Origin: a bacterium
GTDB lineage: Bacteria; Acidobacteriota; Thermoanaerobaculia; Multivoradales; JAHEKO01
Length of the DNA stretch: 64,000 nucleotides
Direction: 5' to 3'
Assembly (NCBI GenBank): GCA_024224155.1
Contig: JAAENP010000095.1
Span: 1 to 64,000, forward strand
Part shown: positions 10,694 through 29,206 of the stretch, one piece after another
Layout: every line of letters begins with the position of its first letter
Position numbering within the stretch: position 1 is the stretch's first letter
Made by a program: the position numbers and the translations under genes
Notes under the pieces: generated by a model
What the model saw: only the letters and a program-made list of their open reading frames with translations
Told to the model about the DNA's origin: nothing
Database searches by the model: none

Positions 10694-12139
10694 ATGACAG
10701 CTCGTACCTGCCTTCTTCTGACACTCGCGGCAACCGCCACCGTGGGTAACCTGCAGGCGCTCACCTACGTGCACGTGAGCGACTTCGGCTTGACGAAGCA
10801 GGCCGAGGTGATCGCTCGCGTCGAAGTGGTGGGGTCCGGCGTCGTGACCCGCGGCAAGCTGATCTCCACCGAGTACACGATGCTGATTCGGGACCTTGCC
10901 AAGGGCACCATCGACGGCTCCTACCTCACGGTAAAGGTGCCGGGCGGCTACTCCGAAGAGCTTGGAGTCGAGCTCGAGTTCTTCGGAGCCCCCGAGTTCG
11001 TGCCCGGAAGCCGGGCTCTTCTGTTCCTGAGACCGAATGACGATGGGTCGTTTCACGTGCTTCACTTCGCGCTCGGCGTGTTTCGAGAGTCAAAGAGCGA
11101 AGGGGCGCCGGTTTTCGTCCGCAGTCTCCCCGAGCCCTTGGACTCGGTGACTCCCTCGTTTCGCGTCGGACGCGACGCCGACCGTTTCATGGGCTGGATT
11201 CGATCCACAGTAGCGGGAGATAGGGCGGAAGCCGACTACTTCGTCGCGCTGGCCGATGAGTCCAGAGCCCATACAGGCGCACCCTTCACGGTCAGGGAGC
11301 CCGCGTACATTCTGTGGGACGAGTTCCACAGGAATGAAAGGGTGACTTGGAGCCGTCACAGAAGCGGCCAGGCGGGAGTACCCGGCAAGGGCAAGAAAGA
11401 GCTCAAGAAGGTGTTCAAGGTGCTCAACAACACCCCGAACAGCACGAACTCCCGCAACGGCCTGGTCAACCTGAAGCTCAAGGGCACGTTTTCCACCAGC
11501 AAGGTCCCGGACCGCGCCAATCAGTGCGTCGAGGACAACATCTTCGTTTTCAACGACGCTCTGGCCATCAGGGATGACTTCGTCTGCTCCGGGGGCCCCG
11601 GCGATGAGATCGGCGGCGTCCTGGCAACCGGCGGCTCCTGCCGATTCGTCAACCCGACCAGCCAATGGAAGGGCAGCGACGTCTTCGGCGCGGTTTCCGG
11701 TTTCGTCAACTTCAACGCGAACACGGCCTGTTTTTACCGTGGCGGTTCTCCGTTCGACCGGGACACAGCCCGCAACAAGTTCGCGGAGGTGGCGATCCAC
11801 GAGGTCTTGCATGCCCTGGGACTCCGGCACGCCTGTGGCGACGACAACAGTCCAAAGTGCTCCTCGAGCGAAGTGCTCGACGACGCCACGATGAGAGCCA
11901 TTACCCACGCCGACGGACGTGGTGCCCAGCTGCGCGAGGACGATCTTTCAGGCTTCTGGCAACTCTACGATCCCGACTACTTCGCCGCCGGCTGCCACCT
12001 CCCTCCCGGCCACAAGAGATTCTGCAAGAAATGCGGACCGTGCGGGGAGGGACAGGGCAAGTGCACCAAGAACAGCCAGTGTTTCGGTGACCTGAAATGC
12101 CGCAACGACTCGGCGCTGGGCTACAAGACCTGCCAGTAG
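10694..12139 (+). CDS. Secreted metzincin protease with N-terminal LTYV domain and Cys-rich tail
   Basis: A 481-residue exported protease. A signal peptide (about 1-22) ends before LTYVHVSDFGLTKQAEVIARV, the start of a beta-rich N-terminal domain shared with the paralogue at 27133. The catalytic site is HEVLHALGLRH (His369, Glu370, His373, His379), a canonical HExxHxxGxxH, followed by ACGDDNSPKC. The C-terminus has Cys at the spacing CxxCxxCx6Cx5Cx5C around CGPCGEGQG, probably disulfide-bonded outside the cell. It lies 234 bp after the short metzincin on the same strand and may have its own promoter. By fold it is a zinc endopeptidase; its target and whether the N-terminal domain is a propeptide or an adhesion module are not determined. 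Confidence 0.88.
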   Translation: MTARTCLLLTLAATATVGNLQALTYVHVSDFGLTKQAEVIARVEVVGSGVVTRGKLISTEYTMLIRDLAKGTIDGSYLTVKVPGGYSEELGVELEFFGAPEFVPGSRALLFLRPNDDGSFHVLHFALGVFRESKSEGAPVFVRSLPEPLDSVTPSFRVGRDADRFMGWIRSTVAGDRAEADYFVALADESRAHTGAPFTVREPAYILWDEFHRNERVTWSRHRSGQAGVPGKGKKELKKVFKVLNNTPNSTNSRNGLVNLKLKGTFSTSKVPDRANQCVEDNIFVFNDALAIRDDFVCSGGPGDEIGGVLATGGSCRFVNPTSQWKGSDVFGAVSGFVNFNANTACFYRGGSPFDRDTARNKFAEVAIHEVLHALGLRHACGDDNSPKCSSSEVLDDATMRAITHADGRGAQLREDDLSGFWQLYDPDYFAAGCHLPPGHKRFCKKCGPCGEGQGKCTKNSQCFGDLKCRNDSALGYKTCQ

Positions 12140-22988: not shown

Positions 22989-24407
22989 CTACGGGACCAG
23001 GTAACTGATCAAGAGCGAGGCCAGGCCGAAGTAGATGATGATCCCGGTGATGTCGTTCGAAGTGGTCACCAGGGGGCCCGCCGCGACCGCCGGGTCGATG
23101 CCCAGCCTCTCGAATACCAAGGGAATGAAAGCACCGTTGACCGATGCCACCACTATCGCGAGAAACAGGGAGACACCTACCACGGCCGCATAGGGCAGCA
23201 ACGCGACATCGCCTTCCAGATCGAGCAGGGGGAGATTGGGCATGACGTAAGCTCCGACCGCTGCCAGCGCCGCACACGCAAGGCCGATGAGCGCTCCGAC
23301 CTTGAACTGCTGCCAGAGGAACTGGCGCGAGGTCCCCCGCTGGAGAGTGATCCTTCCGGTCGCGAGACCGCGAACCGCGATCGTCGACGTCTGGCTGCCG
23401 ATGTTGCCGCCCATGCCCATCACCACGGGCACGAACGGCAACAGAAACAGGGCCTGACTCAGTTGGATCTCGAACCAATGAATCAGGAGACCGGCCACGG
23501 CCAGGCCGACCAGATTCACCACCAGCCAGGGAAAACGGATCCTGAAGACCTTGAACGAATGATCCTGATAGACGATCTCGTCGTCCGAGGTACCCACCAT
23601 CTTGAAGAAGTCCTCGGTGGCCTCCTCTCGAACCACATCGATGATGTCGTCTACCGTGACGATCCCAACGAGTTTGTTGTCGAGGTCGGTAACCGGAATC
23701 GCCAGCAGGTCGTACCGGCTCGCCAGGCTCGCCACCTCCTCCTGGTCCGTGTCGATGTTGGCCCGGATGATCGAGCGCGACATCAGGCTCGCCAGGGGCG
23801 TGCCCGGCGGATTGAGCAACAGCTGCCTCAGCGAGGTAACTCCAACCAGGTGCCCCTCCGCGTCGACGACGTAGAGGTAGAAGATGTTGTCTACATCCTC
23901 GCCTTCCTGAATGGCACCGATTGCTTCGCCGACCGTGGTCTTCTCGGGCAGGGCGAGAAAGTGCGAGTCCATGATCCGACCGGCGGAATCGTCCTCGTAG
24001 GTCAGGTGCTCCTGGACCTCTTCCAGATCGGGCTGCTCGGTCAGCTCCATCACCGAGGCCCTCAGATCGTCCGGAAGGTCTTCGACCACCGCAACCGCGT
24101 CGTCGACCGGCATCTCCCCCAGCAGGTCCGCGATCTCTTCCGGCTCGAGCTCCTCGAATACCCGGGTGCGCAGCGAGGGTTCGAGCTCGGTCAGGACATC
24201 GCCGGCGCTGTCGCGGTAGTCCGCGAGCAGAATGCGAAAGACGCCGGCTTGCTCTGAAGGCATCAAGCCCCGCAGTTGCAGGGCGACATCCTCGGGCCGA
24301 GTCTTGGCCAGCAACTTCGAGACATGAGCTCGCGCCCCGCGCCGCACGAGGCGGCGAAAGGTAGAGCCCAGCAGCTCCGCTTTTCGGGGCGAAACGATCG
24401 GTTCCAT
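22989..24407 (-). CDS. mgtE: Magnesium transporter MgtE
   Basis: A 472-residue Mg2+ channel/transporter in the cytoplasmic membrane. The start at 24407 (MEPIVSPRKAELLGS) is preferred; the frame extends upstream to 24638 over the divergent gene. It has a cytoplasmic N domain of helical repeats (LRGLMPSEQAGVFRILL, LEPEEIADLLGEMPVDDA), two CBS domains acting as the Mg2+ sensor (AGRIMDSHFLALPEKTTV, DTDQEEVASLASRYDLLAIPV), then five TM helices with the pore motif GGNIGSQTSTIAVRGLA and PLVTTSNDITGI. It heads the nine-gene array and is divergent from the VWA-FHA operon, 50 bp apart. Confidence 0.96.
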   Translation of the reverse strand: MEPIVSPRKAELLGSTFRRLVRRGARAHVSKLLAKTRPEDVALQLRGLMPSEQAGVFRILLADYRDSAGDVLTELEPSLRTRVFEELEPEEIADLLGEMPVDDAVAVVEDLPDDLRASVMELTEQPDLEEVQEHLTYEDDSAGRIMDSHFLALPEKTTVGEAIGAIQEGEDVDNIFYLYVVDAEGHLVGVTSLRQLLLNPPGTPLASLMSRSIIRANIDTDQEEVASLASRYDLLAIPVTDLDNKLVGIVTVDDIIDVVREEATEDFFKMVGTSDDEIVYQDHSFKVFRIRFPWLVVNLVGLAVAGLLIHWFEIQLSQALFLLPFVPVVMGMGGNIGSQTSTIAVRGLATGRITLQRGTSRQFLWQQFKVGALIGLACAALAAVGAYVMPNLPLLDLEGDVALLPYAAVVGVSLFLAIVVASVNGAFIPLVFERLGIDPAVAAGPLVTTSNDITGIIIYFGLASLLISYLVP

Positions 24408-24456: not shown

Positions 24457-26157
24457 GTGGGAAAACCCTTGAACCATCGCCACTTATCGCAGAGCTGCCG
24501 GTCGGTGTTCGCGGCCGGCCGGACGAGCGCTTCGAGAGCGGCGCGGGCATCGGCGGTGGCTGCGCGGACGCGGACCCTGAGCTTGATGCTCGTCTCACTC
24601 CTGTCGGGACCGCTCGGCGCCATTCCCGGCTTGGGCAACGCACCCGCCGGGGCGGCCGTACGCTCCTTCGAGCTCAGCCAAACGGCGCTCCTCGAGGCGA
24701 GCCCTACCGCGATTCGCTCCTACGCCAGGGTCCTGGACGAACGCAACGAGCCCATCTTCCATCTCGAAGGCACCACGATCACCGCCTCTCTCGGTGACCG
24801 AGAGCTGGACCTGCGCGGCGTCGAGTCCTTTCACCAGAGTGGCGAGGGTGTTGCTTACATCTTCCTGGTGGACATTTCCCGGTCACTCAGCGATCGCGAG
24901 TTCGCTCTGATTCAGAGATCGCTCGAGAACTGGATGATCGGCCTGCGGCCGCAAGACCGGGCCGCCATCTTGGCGTTCGGCGACGAGAGTCGGCTGGTCG
25001 TGGATTTCACCAATGAAGCCGCTCGGCTAAGAGAGAGCGTCAACGCGTTGGGCCCGACCGACGGCTCCACGGTTCTGTTCGAGGCCCTCCACGACGGTTT
25101 CGAGTTGGCTCGCCGACGCGATACCGATCTGCCTGGCCGGCGCGTCCTCATCGTGCTGACCGACGGTCGCGACGAGGGCAGCGGTTGGTCCCTCGACGAC
25201 ACGCTCTCGATTCTTCGCCAGGATCCAGCGCCGATCTACGCGATCGGTCTCAGCCGAATCCGAGACCAGGCCGAGAGGAGCAGTTACCTGCAGCTCTTGA
25301 GACGACTGGCAACCAACTCGGGCGGCGCCTTCTTCGAAGGGAGCACCGAGACCTTGAACGACTCCTACGGCGCGATCCGGGAAGCCATTCACAACGTCTG
25401 GGTGCTTGATTTTTCCTGTGCCGGCTGCAAGCGTGATGGCGAGAGCTACAGGCTGCAGGCCAACCTCTCGGACGGCGAACGCGTCCTGTCCGATGGCCAG
25501 GCGATTCGGCTCCTGCCGCCCGCCAGCCCGGTGGAGGCGGAGGGCGCCGAGGCCCAGCCCCTCGAGCCGAAAGCCGAGCCGGAAGCGGAGAGCGAGTCGC
25601 TCGCCAGGGCACCGAGCCCGAGCGGGGCATCCGGATGGAGCTGGCTCTGGCTGGCACTGCCGGTTCTCGCGGCTCTGGCAGCCGGCTGGTTGGTTTGGAA
25701 TCGCCGAACTCCTGGCGCGATCACGCCCGAGGCCGATCTCGACAGCCTGCCCCCGGTGGCGCCTGTGGAAACCCCGAGCTACACCACGGACAACGGCCTC
25801 GTGACCAGCAGACCGCCTCGTCCGATCAAGCTTCGAGTCGTTCGGCTGATCGTCGTCCGTGGGAAGAACCCGGGCAAGCAGTACAGCGTGACTCTCCTGG
25901 AGAAGGCCGTCGTGGGAGCCCGGTCGACCTGTGACTGCGTATTGTTCGACGAGCCCGGTGTCTCGCCCGAGCAGTTCGAGCTCTATCAAATGGACGGACA
26001 CGTCTTCCTGCGAAACCTCTCGAAGGACAACCCCACGCTAGTCGATGGCTTGCCGACCGAAAGCCAGCACAGGATTCAAAGCGAAGCGCTCGTGGGCACG
26101 CGCGATTTCATCGTGCGAGTGATTTTCGGTGAAGGGCGTGCGACGGCCCGAGTCTGA
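24457..26157 (+). CDS. VWA domain protein with single TM and cytoplasmic FHA domain
   Basis: 566 residues from a GTG at 24457; an ATG at 24586 is an alternative start that leaves a compact signal sequence (LSLMLVSLLSG). A beta domain (about 70-125) precedes a VWA domain (about 131-300) with an intact MIDAS, DISRS (Asp139, Ser141, Ser143), and LTDGRDEGSG. A Cys pair, CAGCKRDG, and an acidic Pro linker lead to a TM helix (about 394-414) and then an FHA-type beta sandwich (about 470-560, VVGARSTCDCVLFDEPGVS, DNPTLVDG). FHA domains bind phosphothreonine, so an outside-to-inside link is suggested. It overlaps the DUF1566 gene by 29 bp and leads a three-gene operon. Function unknown; a related layout is seen in Acidobacteria-type envelope proteins. 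Confidence 0.85.
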   Translation: MGKPLNHRHLSQSCRSVFAAGRTSASRAARASAVAARTRTLSLMLVSLLSGPLGAIPGLGNAPAGAAVRSFELSQTALLEASPTAIRSYARVLDERNEPIFHLEGTTITASLGDRELDLRGVESFHQSGEGVAYIFLVDISRSLSDREFALIQRSLENWMIGLRPQDRAAILAFGDESRLVVDFTNEAARLRESVNALGPTDGSTVLFEALHDGFELARRRDTDLPGRRVLIVLTDGRDEGSGWSLDDTLSILRQDPAPIYAIGLSRIRDQAERSSYLQLLRRLATNSGGAFFEGSTETLNDSYGAIREAIHNVWVLDFSCAGCKRDGESYRLQANLSDGERVLSDGQAIRLLPPASPVEAEGAEAQPLEPKAEPEAESESLARAPSPSGASGWSWLWLALPVLAALAAGWLVWNRRTPGAITPEADLDSLPPVAPVETPSYTTDNGLVTSRPPRPIKLRVVRLIVVRGKNPGKQYSVTLLEKAVVGARSTCDCVLFDEPGVSPEQFELYQMDGHVFLRNLSKDNPTLVDGLPTESQHRIQSEALVGTRDFIVRVIFGEGRATARV

Positions 26158-27136
26158 CAGGCACCCGCGCCTGATCGCGGCGCGAATCGCCGCGTGGTTG
26201 CTGGGCGTACTCCTGGCTTCGGCACTACCCGCGCCGCCGATCTATGCTACTTCGCAAGAGCCGTGGAAGCCGGCCGCCCCGGTCCAGAAGCCCGATGGGC
26301 CCATCGAAGCCGAGGCCGGTGAGGAATCTCCCGGCGATTCTACAGACACCGAAACGACCGTCGGCGAAGAGCCGGTCAAGGTGGCTACGCTGGTGTTCAC
26401 GACCGATGCGCCATGCAGCCTGATCGTCGGCGGCGTTTCGAAGGGATCGGTCGAACCGGATGAACCGTTGGAAGTCGAAGTCGAGTTCCTGGAGCTCCGG
26501 GTCTCGGCGCTCTCCTCCGAGGTCGCCTTCGCGCGCTGGGACGAGGACCTCGAGCTCGAGCTGGACGAAACCCGAGAGGTCGCGATTCCGATGCTGGAGG
26601 CGATCGAAGAGCAGAGGAAGAAGGAGCGCCGCGAATTGGTGTTCCGCAACATCGATAGTGGCCTGATGTGGACGCGGCGCGACAACGCCAGGGATGTCGC
26701 CTGGACCGGCGCCGCAGCGTACTGTGAAGCTCTCGAGCTGGGCGGTTTCGAGAACTGGCGCCTGCCTTCGATCGAAGAGCTCGAAACCCTCGAGGCGATG
26801 TGGTCGATCAGGCCTCTCAAGGTGGCCGACCAGATTCTGCTGTCGGCCTGTTGCCTCTGGAGCTCGACCGAAGGTACCGACAATTCGGTCTGGAGCCTGG
26901 ACTTTCGGTTCCGTCGAGAGTTCGAGCTCAACCGCAGTCTGTCTTTCGGGCTCAGGGCGCTCTGCCGGAGAGACATGACCGCCGAAGAGCTCGCGGAGGC
27001 CCGACTGGCTGCGGATCCAAAGGAACAGAAACGCCGCCTGAAGGAAAAGCGCCGCCGCCAGGACGAAAAAAAACGCCGCGAAGAGGCGAAAGCCCAACGA
27101 CAAGCCCCGACCGAAGAACCGGAGAAAGAGCCATGA
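26129..27136 (+). CDS. Exported DUF1566 (Lcl-like) domain protein with basic C-terminal tail
   Basis: 335 residues starting with GTG at 26129 inside the 3' end of the VWA-FHA gene. An N-terminal hydrophobic segment (AAWLLGVLLASALPAPP) is a signal peptide or anchor. A low-complexity acidic region is followed by a PEGA-like beta segment (TDAPCSLIVGGVSKGSVEPDEPLEVEVEF) shown here in part, and a DUF1566-type domain from about 178 (GLMWTRRDNARDVAWTGAAAY, NWRLPSIEELETL, CCLWSST). The last 35 residues are strongly basic helix (RRRQDEKKRREEAK). Its stop overlaps the next ATG (ATGA, 27133-27136), so it is translationally coupled to the metzincin. Function unknown. Confidence 0.83.
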   Translation: MKGVRRPESDRHPRLIAARIAAWLLGVLLASALPAPPIYATSQEPWKPAAPVQKPDGPIEAEAGEESPGDSTDTETTVGEEPVKVATLVFTTDAPCSLIVGGVSKGSVEPDEPLEVEVEFLELRVSALSSEVAFARWDEDLELELDETREVAIPMLEAIEEQRKKERRELVFRNIDSGLMWTRRDNARDVAWTGAAAYCEALELGGFENWRLPSIEELETLEAMWSIRPLKVADQILLSACCLWSSTEGTDNSVWSLDFRFRREFELNRSLSFGLRALCRRDMTAEELAEARLAADPKEQKRRLKEKRRRQDEKKRREEAKAQRQAPTEEPEKEP

Positions 27137-28608
27137 GTCATCGAAGCCTAGCCTTCATCTGTTTCACGTGCTTGCTCGTAGCAGCGGTCGAAGCGCGGGC
27201 GCTGACTTATGTACCGGTCTCCGATGGCGACCTCGTGGACCGCTCGGACGTGATCGTTCGGGCCGAGGTCGCCTCCGTTCGGGTCACCGACGAGACCGGC
27301 GGAGTGACGACGGCCTACCGCTTCGCGGTTCTCGAGTCCTTCAAGGGGCCGGATCCGGGCGCGGAGCTGACCGTTCATGTGCCCGGCGGAATCGACCTCG
27401 ACGACGGCCTCGCGGTGAAGGTCTTCGGGACACCGGAGTTCTCGACCGGACAGACGGCTCTGCTCTTTCTCGCGGCTCGTCCGGATCACGGCTACCGGGT
27501 TCTGCACGTGTTTCAGGGTGCTTTTCTCGAGCGCATCGCCGCCGGGCGACGCGTCTTCGAGCGACCCGGCGTCGAAGCCTTCGCGGTCGAGCGAGTCGCC
27601 CCGCTGACTCGAAGTCGCACCGAGAGAGCGCCGCTTCGAATCCGACCGGCGGAACGAGTGCCGCGCGATGGCGCTCTCTTCGAGCGCTGGATCGCGGATC
27701 GCCTTGCCGGTGCCCATCGCGCGGGCGACTATCTGATGCCCGAGTTGCCCGCTTCGGAGTCACGATTGCAGCCGCTAGTGTCGGAGTTCACCTACCTGAT
27801 CGGCGATGATCTGTTGATTCGCTGGTTCGATTTCGACGACGGCGACAAGGTCGGCTGGCATCGTCACCAGGATGGACAGGAGGGGTTCTCGAAAGGCGGA
27901 TCCAAGGAGTTCAAGAAAGCCCGCAACGCCTGGAAGAAAAGGCACTCCGGTGTGCCGATCAAGCTCTCGAACCGCGGCGCGACCTCCTCGACAACCGGCT
28001 TCACGGTCTCGGACGCCCGCAACACTCTGCTCCACAGAGACTTCAACGACTCGATCGGCGAAGACTTCGATTGCGAGGAGGGAGGAGTGCTCGCCATCGG
28101 CGGGCTTTCCGCCACCGACCTGATACCGGTGATCTGGAAAGGCCTGGCGACGGTGGCCGCGAGAGAAGCCGAGATCGTCATGAACGACGCAATCGACTGC
28201 TTCCTGGAGGGAGACAAGAAGGCCGTAGCCCAGATCTACGCGCACGAGCTCGGACACACGCTCGGGCTGGGCCATTCTTGCGGCGATTCGTCCAGCCCCA
28301 AGTGCTCCAAGAGCGAATTCCTTGCCGACGCGCTCATGGTCGCCAGCCTCGACTGGATTTTCGGTGCCGAGCTCCACGACGATGACGTTCTGGCCGCACG
28401 CCAGCTCTACGACGAGGATTTCTGGGCGGCGGCCTGCGAAAAAAGGGTCCCCGGGGCCAAGAGCTTCTGCAGCAAGTGCGGTCCCTGCGGCGAAGGCCAG
28501 GGGAACTGCCGTAACGACAGCGACTGCTTCGGCAGCCTGGTCTGCGCCAAGGACGTAGGCGCGGGCTTCGGGTTCGACGCCAATACCGACGTCTGCACGG
28601 CGCCTTAG
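27133..28608 (+). CDS. Secreted metzincin protease with LTYV domain and Cys-rich tail (paralogue of 10694)
   Basis: 491 residues from the ATG at 27133; the longer frame to 26800 only overlaps the previous gene. It has a signal peptide (about 1-21), then LTYVPVSDGDLVDRSDVIVRAEV, matching LTYVHVSDFGLTKQAEVIARV in the protein at 10694. The zinc motif is HELGHTLGLGH (His371, Glu372, His375, His381), followed by SCGDSSSPKCSKSEF. The Cys-rich tail CSKCGPCGEGQGNC has the same Cys spacing as its paralogue. A Met-turn is likely at ALMVAS. It ends the VWA-FHA/DUF1566 operon. By fold it is a zinc endopeptidase acting outside the cytoplasm; targets are unknown. Confidence 0.88.
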   Translation: MSHRSLAFICFTCLLVAAVEARALTYVPVSDGDLVDRSDVIVRAEVASVRVTDETGGVTTAYRFAVLESFKGPDPGAELTVHVPGGIDLDDGLAVKVFGTPEFSTGQTALLFLAARPDHGYRVLHVFQGAFLERIAAGRRVFERPGVEAFAVERVAPLTRSRTERAPLRIRPAERVPRDGALFERWIADRLAGAHRAGDYLMPELPASESRLQPLVSEFTYLIGDDLLIRWFDFDDGDKVGWHRHQDGQEGFSKGGSKEFKKARNAWKKRHSGVPIKLSNRGATSSTTGFTVSDARNTLLHRDFNDSIGEDFDCEEGGVLAIGGLSATDLIPVIWKGLATVAAREAEIVMNDAIDCFLEGDKKAVAQIYAHELGHTLGLGHSCGDSSSPKCSKSEFLADALMVASLDWIFGAELHDDDVLAARQLYDEDFWAAACEKRVPGAKSFCSKCGPCGEGQGNCRNDSDCFGSLVCAKDVGAGFGFDANTDVCTAP

Positions 28609-28621
28609 GCTCGCCGATCTA

Positions 28622-29206
28622 CTATCGGACTCTCCGAGCGTCGATAAAGAACACCCCTTCCACCCAGGTCTCGCCGCCGTCGAACGAGCGGTCCTTGCGC
28701 CATTTCCAGGAGTTTTCGGTGATGTCGTGAAAGGTATTGCGATCGATGAACGGTCGGTCCTGTCGGTCTCGACCCTCACCACCGGTCATCACCATCGTCG
28801 TCCCGACTTGTTCGGATTCGAAGTATTTCCATTGCAGGCTGCCCGCGGACAGCCAGCGGTTGTCCCACGTCCGGGTCTGGGGATTGAACGAGCGGATATT
28901 CGTACCGTAGAACCGCGCACCGTCGGGCTGCTTTGAAACCCAATCGTCCTGGATGGCCCACCCGTCGAGAATGTAGTAAAAGGTCCAGGTGGCCGGCGCA
29001 GTCGGCTGGATCGAGCCATCCGCCTGCATTCCGCGTGTTTTGCATTCCCACTCGCCGATCGCGAACGAGAACTGGGCGGTCTCGGGCGGCGCCGCGGAGT
29101 TCAGGCTTCCGAAGTCACTCCTGGCCGGGACGGCCTCGCCATAGGCTGCGGCGGACACCAGGGGCACGACGGCCAGGAGTGCGGTAAGGGATCGAGCTAT
29201 CGGCAT
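28622..29206 (-). CDS. Exported DUF1579-like protein
   Basis: 194 residues from the ATG at 29206 (MPIARSLTALLAVVPLVSAAAYGEA). The frame continues to 30133 as antisense of aceK, which is not coding. A signal peptide is followed by a compact beta-barrel-like domain: FSFAIGEWECKTRG, WTFYYILDGWAIQDDWV, RWLSAGSLQWKYFESEQVG, and WKWRKDRSFDGGETWVEG. This repeated aromatic pattern fits DUF1579-type proteins. It is convergent with the metzincin (13 bp gap) and divergent from aceK (150 bp). No enzymatic role can be stated. Confidence 0.78.
   Translation of the reverse strand: MPIARSLTALLAVVPLVSAAAYGEAVPARSDFGSLNSAAPPETAQFSFAIGEWECKTRGMQADGSIQPTAPATWTFYYILDGWAIQDDWVSKQPDGARFYGTNIRSFNPQTRTWDNRWLSAGSLQWKYFESEQVGTTMVMTGGEGRDRQDRPFIDRNTFHDITENSWKWRKDRSFDGGETWVEGVFFIDARRVR

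What the first reader, a model, noticed from the sequence alone, without database searches (positions are those of the whole stretch)
24457..28608. Overlapping three-gene operon: VWA-TM-FHA, DUF1566, metzincin
Seen: three plus-strand genes overlap by 29 bp and by 4 bp (ATGA), so they are translationally coupled. The first has an external VWA domain with intact MIDAS (DISRS), one TM helix and an internal FHA domain. The second is exported with a DUF1566 domain and a strongly basic tail. The third is a secreted zinc protease with a Cys-rich tail. Known: FHA domains read phosphothreonine; VWA domains bind ligands through metal. Inferred: a surface sensing and proteolysis unit in which VWA binding outside is coupled to Ser/Thr phosphorylation inside, with the protease as effector. 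I know of no described system with this gene order.
Basis: partly seen in the sequence, partly recalled or inferred. Interest (0 to 1): 0.72.

Follow-up and report, generated by a model that had tools for sequence, protein, structure and literature searches.

The report
Envelope VWA-FHA receptor, lectin-like protein, protease
An uncultured Acidobacteriota bacterium has a small operon for a membrane-spanning sensor-like protein, an exported lectin-like protein and a predicted exported protease; the order is kept in two related genera, but the sensor's inner domain has lost the residues used to read phosphorylated proteins, so the proposed phospho-signalling is doubtful here.

Summary
The three genes, their order and their domains are real. 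Gene 1 encodes periplasmic VWA (intact MIDAS), CxxC, one TM helix and an FHA-fold domain (AlphaFold pLDDT about 90; matches GarA and OdhI). Gene 2 is an exported DUF1566/Lcl_C protein. Gene 3 is an exported HExxHxxGxxH protein with a Cys-rich tail, by motif only. The order recurs in two congeners and one sister genus (Thermoanaerobaculia). Elsewhere in the order the VWA-FHA gene stands alone, and in two other genera the DUF1566 gene sits beside mgtE alone, so the unit looks assembled once. The phospho-reading step is weakened: all seven Acidobacteriota members have lost the phosphothreonine Arg, His and NG residues, while eight gammaproteobacterial relatives keep the motif (one has HG for NG), and six of those sit with a Ser/Thr kinase and PP2C. 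Two of these clusters also carry a trypsin-TM-FHA protease, one with a kinase-DUF1566 fusion. Best reading: a kinase-less offshoot of a VWA-FHA phospho-signalling family, whose FHA is now probably a phospho-independent docking domain and whose VWA may hold or sense the other two exported proteins. Contacts between the three are untested.

The parts
24457..26157 (+). Gene 1: VWA-TM-FHA inner-membrane protein, 566 aa (GTG start; TTG 24469 possible)
   Evidence: full-length relatives
24577..24633 (+). N-terminal hydrophobic segment (signal peptide or anchor), residues 41-59
   Evidence: hydropathy; helix 29-49 in model
24859..25353 (+). VWA domain, residues 135-299
   Evidence: Pfam VWA 8.6e-14; Foldseek ArnB, BatB, TEM8
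24871..24885 (+). MIDAS DISRS (139-143); T205 and D239 also invariant
25417..25428 (+). CxxC (321-324) in the sandwich after VWA, invariant in all 15 relatives
25639..25698 (+). Transmembrane helix 395-414
25834..26133 (+). FHA-fold domain (460-559)
   Evidence: Pfam; pLDDT about 90; GarA/OdhI TMt 0.81-0.82
25915..25941 (+). GARSTCDCV (487-495): phosphothreonine Arg position is Ala; GxRST kept in all 7 Acidobacteriota members
26129..27136 (+). Gene 2: exported DUF1566 (Lcl_C) protein, 335 aa (GTG start; GTG 26138 possible)
26654..26941 (+). Lcl_C / DUF1566 domain, residues 176-271
   Evidence: Pfam 1.6e-14
27020..27103 (+). Basic core of the C-terminal tail, residues 298-325
27133..28608 (+). 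Gene 3: exported metzincin-like protein, 491 aa
28243..28275 (+). HELGHTLGLGH zinc-binding motif (371-381)
28435..28596 (+). Cys-rich tail (435-488); the module recurs in tandem in other proteins of the family
22989..24407 (-). mgtE, divergent neighbour; syntenic anchor that also neighbours a lone DUF1566 gene in genera g3 and g9

Best explanation
The operon encodes a cell-envelope unit built on a kinase-less offshoot of a VWA-TM-FHA receptor family. Shown: gene order; domains; conserved MIDAS and CxxC outside the membrane; an FHA fold inside; loss of the phosphothreonine contacts in the whole Acidobacteriota branch; retention of them in the gammaproteobacterial branch, where most members have kinase and PP2C neighbours. 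Inferred: in the periplasm the VWA-sandwich binds a protein partner through its MIDAS, most likely the DUF1566 protein and/or the protease made from the same mRNA. Binding state is passed through one TM helix to the FHA-fold domain, which now acts as a phospho-independent docking platform through its conserved GxRST and PEQF surface. The DUF1566 protein supplies lectin-like binding to envelope or extracellular polymer, and the metzincin cuts protein at that place.
For: Order VWA-FHA, DUF1566, metzincin in 4 genomes of two sister genera down to 39-51% identity (mgtE tree). FHA fold by structure without contacts. The seven Acidobacteriota members share a new invariant motif (GxRST, PEQF, PT) instead of drifting freely, which argues for a changed function rather than decay. 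Association recurs: g5 genomes have another VWA gene directly before DUF1566, facing an FHA-trypsin gene and Lon; Methylovulum and G504 clusters have VWA-TM-FHA with trypsin-TM-FHA, and in G504 a kinase-Sel1-Lcl_C fusion. The PpkA paper hypothesises that its extracellular VWA sensor domain transmits environmental signals into the cell (PMC3224232); Lcl-CTD (DUF1566) is a C-type-lectin-like, glycosaminoglycan-binding trimer (PMC11162425).
Against: No contact between the three products has been shown or modelled. In 3 of 7 Acidobacteriota genomes the VWA-FHA gene has no DUF1566 or protease neighbour, and in g3 and g9 the DUF1566 gene stands without VWA. The gene-3 homologue occurs in 14 of 18 family genomes, mostly elsewhere and often in several copies. 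In G012 the genes are 72-197 bp apart, so the overlap is not conserved. The metzincin fold is not confirmed structurally. Arg489, next to the lost Arg, could still take part in phosphate binding.
Confidence: 0.45

Rival explanations
1. Three co-transcribed but functionally unrelated envelope genes: the DUF1566 gene is the old neighbour of mgtE, and the VWA-FHA and protease genes landed on either side of it once, in the ancestor of two genera, and have stayed by slow rearrangement.
For: The whole neighbourhood (ppdK-glyS-glyQ-recO-mgtE) is kept in the same genomes, so lack of rearrangement explains much; the DUF1566 gene alone sits beside mgtE in g3 and g9; VWA-FHA alone in G035, G040, G041; g1 and g7 are sisters by mgtE, so adjacency counts as one event.
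Against: Overlaps in two genomes; VWA+DUF1566 and VWA/FHA/protease associations recur in g5 and in gammaproteobacteria with different genes.
Confidence: 0.3
2. One reading: the FHA domain still reads phosphothreonine made by an unlinked kinase, the VWA senses outside, and the protease is the effector.
For: 26 kinase-domain matches in the genome; gammaproteobacterial homologues linked to kinase and PP2C with canonical FHA; Arg489 lies one residue from the canonical position in all 7 members.
Against: Arg, His and NG positions changed in all 7 Acidobacteriota members and Ser in 4 of 7, against intact Arg in 8 of 8 gammaproteobacterial homologues and 7 of 7 other FHA domains of the same genome; no kinase or phosphatase gene beside any of the seven.
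Confidence: 0.15
3. The FHA-fold domain is a structural assembly module, like the cytoplasmic domain of YscD-type secretion ring proteins, and the unit is part of a larger envelope machine coded elsewhere.
For: Best cytoplasmic-domain Pfam match is Yop-YscD_cpl (2e-8) rather than FHA (4.6e-7).
Against: The two Pfam models overlap for most FHA domains scanned here, canonical ones included; no secretion genes adjacent.
Confidence: 0.1

Closest known systems
Kinase-PP2C-FHA-VWA clusters of Methylomonas, Methylovulum and Candidatus Thiosymbion (found here; no paper found)
   Same: Homologous full-length VWA-CxxC-TM-FHA protein (24-34% identity), MIDAS and CxxC kept; two clusters also hold a trypsin-TM-FHA protease, one a kinase with a C-terminal Lcl_C domain
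   Different: FHA canonical; kinase and PP2C adjacent; no metzincin; no separate exported DUF1566 gene seen
PpkA/PppA/Fha1 of the P. aeruginosa H1-T6SS (PMC3224232)
   Same: Single-TM protein with a VWA sensor domain outside; FHA protein in the circuit
   Different: There VWA is fused to the kinase, FHA is a separate phosphorylated protein, and it belongs to a secretion system; none is linked here
ArnA-ArnB of Sulfolobus (PMC6509490; PDB 8s05, 5a8i, 5a8j)
   Same: FHA and vWA working together; ArnB is the best Foldseek match to gene 1, with VWA inserted in a beta-sandwich
   Different: Two separate proteins whose interaction depends on phosphorylation; phosphate-binding residues present
TIGR03436 VWFA-related Acidobacterial domain
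   Same: Gene 1 matches at 5.8e-20 over 135-332
   Different: 72.0 bits, below the 81.25 cut-off; gene 1 adds TM and FHA
Lcl C-terminal domain (DUF1566) of Legionella (PMC11162425)
   Same: Same Pfam domain, exported
   Different: No collagen-like region; an extra N-terminal region and a basic tail

Membership tests
FHA domain (canonical phosphothreonine reader) | FHA beta-sandwich fold | tested here: met
   pLDDT about 90; GarA/OdhI TMt 0.81-0.82
FHA domain (canonical phosphothreonine reader) | Conserved GR, SxxH and NG phosphothreonine contacts | tested here: not met
   A488, Q506 and P526 in the window; same positions changed in all 7 Acidobacteriota members; GR retained in the other FHA domains of this genome
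VWA domain with MIDAS | DxSxS, T and D metal-binding residues | tested here: met
   D139, S141, S143, T205, D239 invariant in 15 proteins
PpkA-like kinase/PP2C/FHA signalling module | Ser/Thr kinase and PP2C gene in the cluster | tested here: not met
   None in the window by blastp with kinase/PP2C/FHA queries or among own-genome kinase matches; none beside G002, G003, G012, G035, G040, G041
DUF1566 / Lcl_C | Match above Pfam gathering score | tested here: met
   54.6 bits against 34.9
DUF1566 / Lcl_C | Polymer/glycan binding and trimer | not testable with these tools
   Known for Legionella Lcl
Metzincin metallopeptidase | HExxHxxGxxH and Met-turn | tested here: met
   371-381 and M402, invariant in orthologues
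Metzincin metallopeptidase | Metzincin fold / curated family score | tested here: inconclusive
   All Pfam matches below gathering score; AlphaFold pLDDT 42
Conserved three-gene system | Same gene order in other genomes | tested here: met
   G002, G003 (same genus), G012 (sister genus); nowhere else seen in 18 family genomes

The most novel reading that the evidence does not exclude
A previously undescribed envelope signalling family (VWA-CxxC-TM-FHA) in which one branch lost its kinase and phosphatase, turned its FHA domain into a phospho-independent adaptor with a new conserved GxRST/PEQF surface, and now couples outside binding by a lectin-like partner to a secreted metalloprotease.
Probability: 0.25. 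Interest if true: 0.65.

Novelty: new variant of a known kind. Interest (0 to 1): 0.45.

Why it matters
It shows a natural pair of branches of one receptor family, one with an intact phospho-reading FHA beside kinase and phosphatase and one with the reading residues replaced and no kinase. That makes the question of how FHA domains work without phosphothreonine directly testable. It also links VWA, DUF1566 and proteases repeatedly, which gives a lead on the general role of DUF1566, described as unclear in the Lcl structure paper (PMC11162425).

Tried and rejected
AlphaFold of the protease gave pLDDT 42 and was not used for fold search. Sequence search of the PDB with the DUF1566 profile found nothing usable, and a PEGA-like N-terminal domain that I suspected in gene 2 got no Pfam support even at E 5. 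A promoter scan found no sigma-70-like site, and its terminator-like matches are inside genes. Literature searches for a VWA+FHA+DUF1566 system and for phospho-independent FHA returned nothing; the single hit for FHA/VWA/PP2C/trypsin clusters (PMC7159879) was not read, and from its abstract it concerns other systems. The NCBI label 'Deltaproteobacteria' for L086 was rejected: its contig length (448,658) equals that of the G035 contig, which genome search places in the window's own order. A TerY-P triad was considered from memory for the gammaproteobacterial cluster; a search found no paper and it was not tested further.

Full report
What is there. Three plus-strand ORFs, 24457-26157, 26129-27136 and 27133-28608, overlap by 29 and 4 bp. 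The start codons of the first two are GTG and uncertain. They lie between a divergent mgtE (start about 24407) and a convergent ORF ending at 28622, so they form a closed set. Pfam gives VWA (8.6e-14), Yop-YscD_cpl (2e-8) and FHA (4.6e-7) in gene 1, and Lcl_C, formerly DUF1566 (1.6e-14), in gene 2. Gene 3 has only sub-threshold metzincin matches around HELGHTLGLGH. Gene 1 is below the cut-off of TIGR03436.

Gene 1 structure. AlphaFold on an 11-sequence alignment gives confident models of the VWA-sandwich region and of the FHA-fold domain (blocks near 90), a helix at 395-414 and a disordered linker. Foldseek puts the archaeal ArnB first for the VWA part and GarA/OdhI for the FHA part (TMt 0.81-0.82). 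With a hydrophobic N-terminal segment and Arg residues after the TM helix, the VWA part is predicted outside the inner membrane and the FHA part inside. Acidobacteriota are diderm (established knowledge), so outside means periplasm.

Phospho-reading. I compared the canonical contact positions (GR, SxxH, NG) in 15 full-length relatives. All eight gammaproteobacterial proteins have R, S and H; seven of eight have NG and one (Thiosymbion) HG. All seven Acidobacteriota proteins have A, S or T in place of R, Q in place of H, and P in place of the G of NG; the Ser is kept in only three. The seven other FHA domains found in the window's own genome all keep GR. The changed branch is not random decay: GxRST, PEQF and PT are kept in all seven. 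The MIDAS and CxxC residues are kept in all 15, apart from Asn for Asp at window position 236 in one.

Distribution. In the 18 genomes of the family the trio in this order occurs in the window genome, two congeners (G002, G003) and one genome of another genus (G012). An mgtE tree places G012 next to the window genus, so this is best counted as one assembly event, kept down to 39-51% identity. In genera g3 and g9 the DUF1566 gene stands next to mgtE without the others. In three same-order genomes (G035, G040, G041) the VWA-FHA gene stands without the others. The protease family is widespread and multi-copy (14 of 18 family genomes), and the window itself holds a second copy at 10694-12139.

Relatives outside the phylum. 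One genome-contig scan and a family search found eight gammaproteobacterial homologues. Six of them (L088, L089, L091, L092, L174, L175) lie with a zinc-ribbon-like Ser/Thr kinase and a PP2C phosphatase, and most with a further FHA protein. L088 and L175 also have a trypsin-TM-FHA protease, and the L175 kinase ends in an Lcl_C domain just above its cut-off. In genus g5 of the window's own family the DUF1566 gene follows a different VWA gene and faces an FHA-trypsin gene and Lon. Thus VWA, FHA, DUF1566 and a protease come together more than once with non-homologous parts. These associations were noticed after the fact and no formal test was made.

Interpretation. I favour a kinase-less offshoot of a phospho-signalling receptor family: VWA as MIDAS-dependent binder in the periplasm, FHA fold as phospho-independent docking platform, DUF1566 as lectin-like partner (by analogy with Legionella Lcl, PMC11162425), and protease as effector. 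The binding steps are inference. The main rival is that the adjacency is inherited synteny beside mgtE.

Comparison. PpkA (PMC3224232) and ArnA/ArnB (PMC6509490) are the closest described systems that combine VWA and FHA. Neither has this architecture or gene order. Literature searches found no description of this trio, within an open-access library that lacks most subscription papers.

Noticed in passing
window 10694-12139 (+): Second metzincin-like gene, about 37-41% identical to gene 3, with the same N-terminal region, HExxHxxGxxH and Cys-rich tail.
   Followed up: partly
G010:C21:39874-40599, G009:C244:22562-23080, G008:C36:2221-2907: The Cys-rich tail module of gene 3 occurs as several tandem copies in 738-843 aa open frames of genus g5.
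   Followed up: no
L175:12501-15320 (-): Ser/Thr kinase with Sel1 repeats and a C-terminal Lcl_C/DUF1566 domain (36.0 bits, cut-off 34.9) beside VWA-TM-FHA, two PP2C, FHA and trypsin-TM-FHA genes.
   Followed up: partly
L062:11126-12721 (-), L063:5152-6708 (+): FHA-trypsin proteins next to Lon and DUF1566 in genus g5; their FHA also lacks the GR arginine (GT).
   Followed up: partly
L058:13510-16719 (-): TIR-NB-ARC-TPR gene downstream of aceK in congener G003, absent at this place in the window; possible defence gene.
   Followed up: no
L086 / L161: MAG contig JAHZIX010000017.1 is titled Deltaproteobacteria but matches the G035 contig in length and content, and G035 is placed in the window's order of Acidobacteriota.
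   Followed up: yes
L065:5001-6284 (-): Gene-3 relative in which the third zinc-binding His is lost (HELGHTLGLGP).
   Followed up: no
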